Shown here in pieces: positions 1-2,066 of a stretch of 7,926 nucleotides of DNA. A model generated the notes under the pieces. That model saw nothing but the letters and a program-made list of their open reading frames with translations. It was not told the origin of the DNA and did no database searches. Location: NCBI GenBank assembly GCA_017620315.1, contig JAFZQQ010000374.1, positions 1 to 7,926 of the forward strand. Direction: 5' to 3'. Within the stretch, counting starts at the first letter, position 1; every line of letters begins with the position of its first letter. This DNA comes from Oscillospiraceae bacterium (GTDB lineage: Bacteria > Bacillota > Clostridia > Oscillospirales > Oscillospiraceae). The translations under genes and the position numbers were made by a program.

Positions 1-270
1 CGCCTCCGGCGGGCTCAGGCGCGGGTGCCGGGGCCGCGGCTCCGCCGCCGTTCATCAGCGCTTCGATCTGCTCCTGCGTGAGCGTCCCGCCGCCTCCCGC
101 CGGTGCGGGTGCGGGCGCCGGGGCTGCGGCTCCGCCGCCGCTCATCATCGCCTCGATCTGCTCCTGCGTAAGCGTTCCGCCGCCTCCGGCGGGTTCGGGT
201 GCGGATGCGGCAGGAGCGTTCGCCGCTGCCATCATCGCCTCGATCTCCGCCTGAGACATCGGGCGTCCGC
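1..270 (-). repeat. 90-bp tandem repeat encoding the FliY linker
   Basis: Bases 1-90 and 91-180 are two direct copies of a 90-bp unit differing at about 13 positions. Bases 181 to about 270 are a third, more diverged copy with a spacing of about 87 bp. The period is a multiple of three, so the frame is kept. Each unit encodes a Gly4 stretch, a TLTQEQIEA(M/L)M-type peptide, a Gly3 stretch and an Ala-Pro tail. The last codons before the window edge (Pro-Ala-Gly-Gly) match the start of another unit, so the array may extend outward. Confidence 0.9.
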
Positions 271-916
271 CGGAATCATCCTCGATCTCAGCCTCAAGGA
301 CGCCGGACGAATCCTCGCCCTCGCCCAGGCCGAAGCCGGAAACCATTTCCTTCGCGAGCTCCACTGACATAACGTTCATGAACTCGCTGCTCATCGCACC
401 TTCGATGCTCAGCGCGAAGGAGACTACCACGATCGGGCCCTGCTGCACGGGCAGATGCTCCGCGCGCATCTGTTCCATGCTGTCGCAATTAAAGGTCACC
501 GGCGTTGAAATGTTGACGACGCGTCCGAGGAAGTCGCTCAGTGCCGTGGAGGACGAGCCCATCATCTGGTTCATGACCTCGCAGACCGCGCTGAGCGTCA
601 GGTCGTTGAGCTCGAACTCCTCGTCCGGCGTCTCCATTCCCATAAGGATGTCGACGATGAGCTTGACGTCGCTCATTTTCAGAAGCATGATGTTGCTTCC
701 GTCAAGTCCTGCGACATAGCGTATCTCGACGCCTATCGCAGGATTCAGCTGTCCCAGTGTGAAGTCCTCCGCATTTACGATCCTGACTGTCGGAGTCGTA
801 ATGTCAACTCTGTGATCCAGCAGGTTAGAGACCGCTGTTGCCGAAGAGCCCAGACTGATGTTCATGATCTCTCCGATGGCGTCTATTTCCATCGGGGTAA
901 AGATTTCATTCGCCAT
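1..916 (-). CDS. fliY: Flagellar motor switch phosphatase FliY, 3' end beyond window
   Basis: C-ring switch protein that hydrolyses CheY-P and, through a FliN-like C-terminal domain, forms part of the rotor. 305 codons are visible; the FliN/SpoA domain lies beyond position 1. The reading starts at ATG 916-914 (MANEIFTPMEIDAIGEI), overlapping the fliM end by 11 bp, with a loose GGGAGGGAG about 12 nt upstream. Residues 1-200 are a CheC-like domain. Both phosphatase centres fit the family pattern [DS]-x3-E-x2-N-x22-P: D12/E16/N19/P42 and S109/E113/N116/P139. Residues 215-305 form an acidic, then Ala/Pro/Gly-rich linker with three copies of an (L/M)(S/T)Q-x-x-IEA-(M/L)M peptide at residues 220-229, 249-258 and 279-288. 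Bacillus FliY carries such a peptide at its N-terminus, where it is missing here. Gene position after fliM, the phosphatase motifs and the GSSATA(V/L)S stretches make the call firm. Confidence 0.95.
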   Translation of the reverse strand, partial: MANEIFTPMEIDAIGEIMNISLGSSATAVSNLLDHRVDITTPTVRIVNAEDFTLGQLNPAIGVEIRYVAGLDGSNIMLLKMSDVKLIVDILMGMETPDEEFELNDLTLSAVCEVMNQMMGSSSTALSDFLGRVVNISTPVTFNCDSMEQMRAEHLPVQQGPIVVVSFALSIEGAMSSEFMNVMSVELAKEMVSGFGLGEGEDSSGVLEAEIEDDSGGRPMSQAEIEAMMAAANAPAASAPEPAGGGGTLTQEQIEAMMSGGGAAAPAPAPAPAGGGGTLTQEQIEALMNGGGAAAPAPAPEPAGG

Positions 917-2066
917 CTCTCTGCAAACTCCCTCCCTCATCAAGTTCCGGCTCTGCAACGATCTCCGGCCCGGTCAACTCGCCCGGTTCACTTTCAGTTG
1001 CAAGTCCCTGCAGCTCCTGCATTGCCTGTATCTGCTGTTGCTGCTGTTGTTGTTGCTGATCGCGGATCAGTGTAAACTCGCTTCTCAGCTCGCCCTGCAC
1101 ATCGCGTATCTTGACTGCAAGGCGTTTTTCGTGTGTTCCCATGTATCCCGCGAACCACTCGCGTCCGCCGATACGAAGACTGACCACGGAATCCTTTTTC
1201 TTATTCATGTCGATCACATCGCCGACATTCAGGTTGTAAATGTCCTGCAAACGGAGCCTTGTGCGTCCAAGCTCCGCCGTGATCTCCAGCTCGCTGGTGC
1301 GAAGGTGGGTATAGATGTCGTCCGAATGATCCTCGCGTTCCTTGCGCATCACCGCGTTGCCCTTGTTGATCTCGGTGAATATCTTGCTCAGCACCGCATC
1401 CGGAAGGCAGATGTCCAAGCGCCCGGAGCTGTTTGAGAATTTGATGTCTAGGCTGACCATGATGACCGTTTCTTCAAAGCCGATGAGCTGCACAAGCGTA
1501 GGGTTTGCCTCGATTCGCCCGTACTCGAAGCGCAGGCTTATGTAGTTCTCCCAGCTTCCGCCCATTATATTGACGAAGTCAGTCATAAGGTTCTGGTAAA
1601 GGCTCAGGTCGAGGTCCGTATAGGTGTAGTCGGAGGGCAGATCCTCCTCAACATCGCCGTTGCCGCCCATAAGTCTGTCTATAAGGCTGACCATTATGCT
1701 CGGCGTCGCCACGATGATGACCGGGGTGTCCTCTCTGTCGCCGTGGATGTCCAGATACGCCAGAGTGACCACCTGACCGTCGATCAGTGCGTTGGAAAAC
1801 TCGTAGTATCGCTGCTCGTCGACCGTGTCCACCTCCACCTCGCAGGTGGCGCGGGCAAGTGCGTTGATACGGGTGTTTAGGACCTTCGCATAGTTCTCGA
1901 AAACACCGTTGAGCATCTTCAAACGCTCCTTGGTGTATTTTCGGGGACTTCGGAAGTCGTACTTTAAGTACTTCTTTTCTTCCTTCTGCTGCGAGAGGTC
2001 CTGAGTCCCGCTCATTGCTGCGGCCAACAGCGCGTCGATTTGACTTTGTGATAATACCTCGGCCAT
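906..2066 (-). CDS. fliM: Flagellar motor switch protein FliM
   Basis: C-ring protein that binds CheY-P and transmits the switch to the rotor. The product is 386 aa. Residues 5-14 (LSQSQIDALL) are the CheY-P docking peptide. YDFRSPRKYTKERL (36-49) leads into the CheC-like middle domain, which has the GGxG motif at G134-G137. The C-terminal SpoA domain (about 255-332) includes LRLQDIYNLNVGDVI and ends around EFTLIRD. After it comes an unusual tail of about 50 residues: nine consecutive Gln (337-345), then an acidic Pro/Glu/Gly stretch; most FliM proteins stop soon after the SpoA domain. The start ATG 2066-2064 has GGAGAGG seven bases upstream. It begins 38 bp after motB and its end overlaps the fliY start, suggesting translational coupling. 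No fliL lies between motB and fliM. Confidence 0.97.
   Translation of the reverse strand: MAEVLSQSQIDALLAAAMSGTQDLSQQKEEKKYLKYDFRSPRKYTKERLKMLNGVFENYAKVLNTRINALARATCEVEVDTVDEQRYYEFSNALIDGQVVTLAYLDIHGDREDTPVIIVATPSIMVSLIDRLMGGNGDVEEDLPSDYTYTDLDLSLYQNLMTDFVNIMGGSWENYISLRFEYGRIEANPTLVQLIGFEETVIMVSLDIKFSNSSGRLDICLPDAVLSKIFTEINKGNAVMRKEREDHSDDIYTHLRTSELEITAELGRTRLRLQDIYNLNVGDVIDMNKKKDSVVSLRIGGREWFAGYMGTHEKRLAVKIRDVQGELRSEFTLIRDQQQQQQQQQIQAMQELQGLATESEPGELTGPEIVAEPELDEGGSLQRDGE

What the first reader, a model, noticed from the sequence alone, without database searches (positions are those of the whole stretch)
53..259. Tandem CheY-docking-like peptides in the FliY linker
Seen: FliY residues 220-229 (MSQAEIEAMM), 249-258 (LTQEQIEAMM) and 279-288 (LTQEQIEALM) resemble the FliM docking peptide in the same window (LSQSQIDALL) and the LSQ-x-EIDALL peptide of Bacillus FliM and FliY. 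The peptides sit in flexible Ala/Pro/Gly spacers repeated every 87-90 bp. FliY here lacks the usual N-terminal copy and begins straight at the CheC-like domain. Inference: the docking peptide moved into the linker and multiplied, making a multivalent CheY-P tether beside the phosphatase and rotor domains. Repeat number could vary between strains and tune the switch. Whether this arrangement has been described is not known to me.
Basis: partly seen in the sequence, partly recalled or inferred. Interest (0 to 1): 0.72.

Follow-up and report, generated by a model that had tools for sequence, protein, structure and literature searches.

The report
Repeated CheY-docking peptides in FliY linker
The flagellar switch protein FliY of this bacterium carries, in the stretch after its first domain, at least three copies of a short peptide matching the one with which other switch proteins hold the signal protein CheY; relatives carry none to six copies, and the array would likely collect CheY next to the rotor and to FliY's own predicted phosphatase, making the number of signal-docking sites per rotor an evolvable setting.

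Summary
Window FliY (minus strand, 916 to 2, cut by the contig end) has three linker peptides at 259-230, 172-143 and 82-53. They score 24.5-26.2 bits against a profile built only from N-terminal FliM/FliY docking peptides; the best of 20,000 linker shuffles reached 15.0. Of 171 FliY genes compared (a sample weighted to close relatives), 91 have linker copies, 42 the usual N-terminal copy, 33 neither, 5 are cut too early to tell, none has both. Copy number runs from 0 to 6. Two complete genes, 95.9% identical, differ by one 87-bp unit, besides a 3-base gap and substitutions. Synonymous change in the peptides is as high as in the spacers, replacement change much lower. AlphaFold puts a short helix at four of five copies of a relative. 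Both CheC-type active sites are intact; eight relatives have no separate FliN. Most likely these are CheY-docking peptides forming a multivalent tether beside the phosphatase; binding is untested. 'Moved from the N-terminus' is not shown. The same peptide arrays occur in two other protein types. New variant of a known kind.

The parts
2..916 (-). fliY, 5' part (ATG at 916-914); runs off the contig start inside the linker
   Evidence: ORF; CheC Pfam match; FliY equivalog NF005995 match of the complete close relative L034; window is the whole contig
317..910 (-). CheC-like phosphatase domain of FliY (limits approximate)
   Evidence: Pfam CheC 2e-25; model of L034 FliY matches T. maritima FliY 4hyn, E 4.4e-17
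791..883 (-). first CheC-type active-site signature, DxxxExxN-x22-P (D12, E16, N19, P42)
500..592 (-). second CheC-type active-site signature, SxxxExxN-x22-P (S109, E113, N116, P139)
21..253 (-). tandem repeat array, period about 90 bp, spacer rich in Ala, Pro and Gly
230..259 (-). docking-like peptide 1, MSQAEIEAMM
   Evidence: 24.5 bits against the N-terminal docking profile
143..172 (-). docking-like peptide 2, LTQEQIEAMM
   Evidence: 25.3 bits
53..82 (-). docking-like peptide 3, LTQEQIEALM
   Evidence: 26.2 bits
906..2066 (-). fliM, overlapping the start of fliY by 11 bases
   Evidence: Pfam FliM 2.7e-36; TIGR01397
2025..2054 (-). canonical N-terminal CheY-docking peptide of FliM, LSQSQIDALL
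   Evidence: 30.7 bits; this or a near variant in 77 of 80 named loci, the other 3 cut by the contig end

Best explanation
FliY carries tandem copies of a docking-type peptide in the linker between its CheC-type phosphatase domain and (in complete relatives) its FliN domain, and these would likely bind CheY-P as a multivalent tether that collects the signal at the rotor and hands it to the phosphatase. Shown: the peptides, their place, their conservation, their variable number, the intact phosphatase signatures, the FliN-type domain in relatives and the absence of a second FliN in 8 relatives. Inferred: that the peptides bind CheY, and CheY-P better than CheY; that the flexible spacers let each bound CheY-P reach the CheC active sites or pass to FliM; that more copies raise local CheY-P and lengthen its stay. 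The working principle resembles CheZ, where a separate peptide on a flexible arm docks CheY for the catalytic core (CheZ comparison recalled, not from a call), here multiplied and built into the rotor. FliM keeps its own single peptide and would remain the actuator of switching.
For: A profile from N-terminal peptides alone recognises the linker copies; NCBIfam's FliM model aligns its positions 2-21 to the linker copy at 314-333 of L034 FliY, weakly (E 0.00026, 20.3 bits against a cut-off of 206, no stretch passing on its own). Conserved across a 105-row clade with SH-aLRT 98: 90 with copies, 10 without, 5 cut. pN/pS 0.25 in the 10 codons, 0.80 and 0.64 in the flanks; pS 0.68 against 0.60 and 0.72, so the likeness is not merely recent duplication; position 5, not fixed by the search pattern, is E/Q/D in 177 of 179 and position 8 is free (0.81). 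Two exact (D/S)xxxExxN-x22-P sites in 170 of 171. A CheY-like receiver gene, found by a sequence pattern, within 0.9 kb downstream in 68 of 69 testable linker-type loci; that of L034 is close to T. maritima CheY, E about 8e-37. Helices at copies 1-4 of 5. Only FliM and FliY carry the FliN-type domain in 8 of 8 genomes tested, so every FliN place in such rotors would bear FliY. One-unit difference between 95.9%-identical genes.
Against: No binding data. Consensus differs from FliM: E for D at position 7, often M for L at 9 and 10. For T. maritima FliY, assays reported no higher affinity for activated than for inactive CheY (PMC7355467, passages read). Complete FliYs with zero copies exist in this clade: L058, L064, L071, L075, L078, L123, L126-L129, so the array is dispensable. 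The conservation test used units found by a pattern that fixes Q at position 3 and limits six others. The five-copy model has pTM 0.41, the helices have block pLDDT 52-73, and the fifth copy is not helical. The cheY of the window's own genome was not identified.
Confidence: 0.62

Rival explanations
1. The linker peptides bind CheY-P but act as a sink that buffers and damps the signal, not as a feed for the phosphatase or the switch.
For: More docking sites per chain than the single FliM peptide; the FliM peptide is kept in 77 of 80 named loci, the other 3 being cut; FliY is the only FliN-type protein besides FliM in 8 of 8 genomes.
Against: The array is fused to a phosphatase domain with intact signatures, which would turn a sink into a drain.
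Confidence: 0.2
2. The peptides dock another partner, such as FliY's own CheC domain, another subunit of the C-ring, or a different receiver protein.
For: Residue 7 is E where FliM has D; the same peptides occur in ComFB-type and MGNVLK-type proteins whose partners are unknown; one genome (G398) has the peptides in an MGNVLK-type protein but not in its FliY.
Against: The core positions of the CheY-docking peptide are kept (Q3 by choice of pattern, I6 in 178 of 179, acid at 7 in 175 of 179), and a CheY-like gene lies behind fliY in 68 of 69 testable linker-type loci.
Confidence: 0.15
3. Neutral tandem duplication in a GC-rich spacer, with no function beyond spacing.
For: Copy number 0-6, unit gain or loss between close kin, some lineages without any.
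Against: Replacement change is low in the peptide and high around it at similar synonymous change; 90 of the 100 clade members that can be judged keep at least one copy.
Confidence: 0.08

Closest known systems
FliY of Bacillus subtilis and Thermotoga maritima (CheC-FliN rotor phosphatase)
   Same: CheC-like domain with two active-site signatures, linker, FliN-type C-terminal domain in relatives; gene behind fliM
   Different: Docking motif at the N-terminus there (EIDALL motif at the N-termini of FliM and FliY, PMC9126983, passages); here none at the N-terminus and three or more in the linker
N-terminal CheY-docking peptide of FliM (FliM-N)
   Same: L/M-S/T-Q-x-x-I-D/E-x-L/M-L/M core, predicted short helix
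   Different: Internal, tandem, several per chain; acid is Glu where E. coli FliM has Asp12, which bridges to CheY Lys119 in simulations (PMC7012829, passages)
CheZ, with its C-terminal CheY-docking peptide on a flexible arm (recalled)
   Same: Separate docking peptide tethered flexibly to a CheY-P phosphatase core
   Different: Unrelated fold; one peptide per chain; not built into the rotor (recalled)
CheC and CheX phosphatases
   Same: Fold and active-site signature (signature recalled)
   Different: No FliN domain; no docking array that I know of (not searched)

Membership tests
FliY (CheC-FliN switch phosphatase) | CheC-like domain | tested here: met
   Pfam CheC 2e-25 on the window protein
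FliY (CheC-FliN switch phosphatase) | Two (D/S)xxxExxN-x22-P active sites | tested here: met
   Both in the window protein; exact signature twice in 170 of 171 genes, once in L131
FliY (CheC-FliN switch phosphatase) | C-terminal FliN-type (SPOA) domain | tested here: inconclusive
   Window gene is cut by the contig end and the only FliN-type match in its genome is FliM; met in complete relatives, e.g. L034 E 5.7e-21
FliY (CheC-FliN switch phosphatase) | CheY-P phosphatase activity | not testable with these tools
   Signature only
CheY-docking peptide (EIDALL type) | Sequence consensus | tested here: met
   24.5-26.2 bits against a profile of N-terminal peptides; shuffle maximum 15.0
CheY-docking peptide (EIDALL type) | Location at the N-terminus | tested here: not met
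   None at the N-terminus of the window FliY or of the other linker-type genes among 91; hence called docking-like here
CheY-docking peptide (EIDALL type) | Helix formation | tested here: inconclusive
   Short helices predicted at 4 of 5 copies of L034, block pLDDT 52-73
CheY-docking peptide (EIDALL type) | Binding to CheY-P | not testable with these tools
   No complex prediction or assay available
CheZ | CheZ fold and catalytic residue | not tested
   Compared for working principle only, from recall

The most novel reading that the evidence does not exclude
A portable, copy-number-tunable CheY-docking array: in Oscillospirales the docking peptide left its fixed N-terminal seat, was multiplied in tandem, and was fitted to at least three protein types (the FliY rotor phosphatase; a ComFB-type protein, relatives of which are encoded behind a ParA-like ATPase; an MGNVLK-type protein with 2-11 copies and a last copy nearly always 19 residues from the C-terminus), making CheY capture a quantity that evolution sets by gaining or losing units of about 90 bp.
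Probability: 0.35. Interest if true: 0.8.

Novelty: new variant of a known kind. Interest (0 to 1): 0.6.

Why it matters
How many CheY-P molecules a motor holds, and where they are dephosphorylated, sets the sensitivity of the flagellar switch. FliM, and FliY of most other Clostridia sampled here, typically offer one N-terminal peptide. Here the number per FliY chain varies from 0 to 6 among relatives, with a single-unit change between close kin, on the subunit that also carries the phosphatase signature and is the only FliN-type protein besides FliM in 8 of 8 genomes tested. That gives a natural dosage series for testing how docking-site number shapes switch gain and recovery time. If the arrays in ComFB-type and MGNVLK-type proteins bind CheY too, they name unknown CheY clients.

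Tried and rejected
Internal translation start giving a FliN-like short product: considered because some copies begin with Met; set aside because position 1 is Leu in 94 and Met in 85 of 179 copies. Separate FliN gene: none in 8 of 8 genomes. Recovery of the missing 3' end of fliY from the same assembly: the only FliN-type match is FliM. Identity of PF28396, which the protein database lists on most of these FliYs: not in the held Pfam; its meaning is unknown to me and may overlap with this feature. The other array families were followed for co-occurrence: in G398's family 2 of 148 genomes have the MGNVLK type and both have FliM (49 of 148 have FliM), one genus only, so weak. Of 40 ComFB matches in 30 of 32 chosen genomes, all 40 frames were read: one (L238, genome G005) has a docking-type peptide, LSQDEIERML; one (L219) has repeats of MSDDAIAALF, which score under 8 bits; that of the window's own genome (L209) has none. 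So arrays in ComFB proteins are uncommon in the window's relatives. Prior art: eight full-text searches on FliY, CheY and the motif listed no title or abstract about linker or tandem docking peptides in FliY; I read listings and, of four papers, passages only. Subscription papers are mostly not held, and PMC3650386, PMC2850201 and PMC6436343 could not be read. Two further searches were on ComFB and on CheY contacts.

Full report
What is there. The window is the whole 7926-base contig G000:C23 of a 68.6% complete genome. On the minus strand it carries a flagellar gene run, and near its start the 5' part of fliY. FliY begins at 916, overlaps fliM by 11 bases, and is cut at base 2 inside the linker. 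Three docking-like peptides lie at 259-230, 172-143 and 82-53, 87 and 90 bp apart.

Is it more than chance. I built a 10-position profile only from peptides near the N-terminus: 17 distinct FliY and 17 distinct FliM 10-mers, no linker sequence. The three linker peptides score 24.5, 25.3 and 26.2 bits, the window's FliM peptide 30.7. The best score in 20,000 shuffles of the linker was 15.0, the 99th percentile 3.3. Independently, NCBIfam's FliM model aligns its N-terminal positions 2-21 to a linker copy of the complete relative L034, though weakly (E 0.00026, 20.3 bits, far under that family's cut-off of 206).

How widespread. I read 183 FliY frames: 80 named loci (the closest of 508 confirmed) and loci of genomes without names. 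Eleven repeats of the same locus and one frame without my anchor (L115, which has three linker copies) were dropped, leaving 171. At 12 bits or more: 91 have linker copies and no N-terminal copy, 42 an N-terminal copy only, 33 neither, 5 are cut too early to tell, none has both. The 73 complete linker-type genes have 1 (24), 2 (33), 3 (5), 4 (9) or 5 (2) copies. Of 4505 proteins found in a metagenome-scale search with FliYs of this type the best 120 were listed; all 120 have at least one copy: 1 (2), 2 (42), 3 (56), 4 (15), 5 (4), 6 (1). That set is biased to such proteins. Cultured strains show it too: [Clostridium] viride DSM 6836 has 2 (L105), Oscillibacter ruminantium GH1 4 (L108), Flintibacter muris 1 (L104), Neglectibacter sp. 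X58 4 (L061).

History. A CheC-domain tree of the 171 puts 90 linker-type genes in one 105-row group (SH-aLRT 98; with 10 motif-less and 5 cut rows); the remaining one, L124, stands apart. Three labels need 10 changes against a mean of 66 for shuffled labels. All 42 N-terminal genes lie on the other side, with 3 motif-less ones, and further motif-less lineages lie between (quick method, midpoint root, deep branches weak). So the N-terminal peptide was probably lost before the linker peptide arose; a direct move is not shown. Within the group the array was lost several times (L058/L064/L075, L071, L078, L123, L126-L129).

Selection or mere duplication. In 179 copies from 89 loci (the window itself left out), compared over 3693 pairs of well separated loci, pN/pS is 0.25 in the peptide (0.169/0.683) and 0.80 and 0.64 in the flanks. 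Synonymous differences are high in both, so the likeness is old and held by selection. Copies were found with a pattern, which biases seven of ten positions; position 5, which the pattern leaves free, is still E, Q or D in 177 of 179, position 4 has ratio 0.17, while position 8 is free (0.81).

Copy number changes. L046 and L047, both complete, are 95.9% identical over 1314 aligned bases and differ by one 87-base gap, which holds one unit, and one 3-base gap. Both are metagenome assemblies, so collapse of a repeat cannot be fully excluded. In 20 of the 80 named loci the contig ends inside fliY, as in the window: the array seems to break assemblies, and counts may be low.

Surroundings. Both CheC-type active-site signatures are intact in the window and in 170 of 171 genes. 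The model of L034 FliY matches T. maritima FliY 4hyn best (E 4.4e-17). A CheY-like receiver gene, found by pattern, follows within 0.9 kb in 68 of 69 testable linker-type loci; that of L034 is closest to T. maritima CheY, including 4iga. CheY of the window's own genome was not picked out among 47 receiver matches. FliM keeps LSQSQIDALL or a near variant in 77 of 80 named loci, the other three being cut. Eight of eight genomes have exactly two FliN-type domains, one in a frame that is FliY and one in the FliM frame before it.

Structure. AlphaFold of L034 FliY (17 sequences; mean pLDDT 64.8, pTM 0.41) gives a confident CheC part and a linker mostly of low confidence, with short helices at 222-233, 253-260, 283-290 and 319-327, on copies 1 to 4; copy 5 has none, and the linker also holds a long confident helix at 405-445 outside the array.

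Working. The best reading is a CheZ-like tether (CheZ recalled) made multivalent: docking peptides on flexible arms would catch CheY-P at the rotor and present it to the CheC active sites of the same chain, while FliM's single peptide acts on the switch. Binding, phosphorylation dependence and the role of copy number are inferred. Against it: T. maritima FliY was reported not to prefer activated CheY (PMC7355467, passages), and zero-copy relatives exist.

Beyond FliY. The profile search met other proteins with the same arrays. The 340 proteins collected are the listed best of three searches. Crude script rules sorted 178 as FliY, 134 as a type beginning MGNVLK..., 22 as ComFB-type and 6 as other (at least P0167 is a FliY missed by the rule); all have at least one copy. 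MGNVLK-type proteins have 2-11 copies, with the last copy 19 residues from the C-terminus in 120 of 134; ComFB-type proteins have 2-5. Two of these searches used array-bearing queries and the third FliYs with arrays, so they say nothing on frequency. In a look not chosen by array, 1 of 40 ComFB frames from 30 genomes has a docking-type peptide. A ParA-like gene lies before the ComFB-type or array gene in L188, L189 and L190, and a gene that I read as fliD (by eye, no family search) lies beside it in L189 and L190. In the window's own, incomplete, genome the one ComFB found has no array and the MGNVLK type was not found.

Papers: PMC9126983, PMC7355467, PMC7012829 and PMC6946799 were read as passages. 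The reference list of PMC6946799 names a T. maritima CheY structure with the FliM N-terminal region; I saw the title only.

Noticed in passing
L186 833-2365 (G398:C9); P0237-P0340: Unnamed protein type (N-terminal MGNVLKxNRYRLVDN domain, without a Pfam or NCBIfam match of its own) followed by up to 11 tandem MSQ[DE][DE]IE[AK][LM][LI]-like peptides; last copy 19 residues from the C-terminus in 120 of 134.
   Followed up: partly
L187/L190 (G250:C275); P0132, P0137, P0139, P0185, P0195; L238 (G005): ComFB-domain proteins with 2-5 docking-like peptides (P records) or one (L238); in L190 an array-bearing gene, cut by the contig end before any ComFB domain, lies right behind a ParA-like ATPase gene.
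   Followed up: partly
L188 847-2058, L189 104-1351, L219: In three genomes whose FliY linker has no docking peptide (G271, G327, G160), the ComFB-type protein carries repeats of a different peptide, [LM]SDDAI[AS]ALFAQN.
   Followed up: partly
L024 (G008), L178 (G242), L183 (G278): FliY N-termini: More than one copy at the N-terminus: L178 and L183 have LSQDEINALL and MSQAELDALL; L024 has LSQEEIEAMM followed by degenerate MSPEAIAAMLDD, MSPEAVAAMLDD and MSAEDIASLLEG, so multiplication also happened there.
   Followed up: partly
L142 (G632), L143 (G560): Linker-type FliY with two copies each in genomes of the same class but other families, outside the window's order by the tool's kinship labels; transfer or misplacement, not resolved.
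   Followed up: no
L150-L152, L154, L156, L157, L165, L171, L172, L174: The first helix of the CheC domain of many FliYs (e.g. LTPEEIDALG) itself scores as a docking-type peptide at 12 bits or more; it was kept out of the N-terminal count by position.
   Followed up: no
L116 and L185 (both G223): One genome assembly carries two fliY genes of the linker type.
   Followed up: no
window 1030-1059: Run of Gln codons near the FliM C-terminus; the FliM of the close relative L034 lacks it.
   Followed up: no
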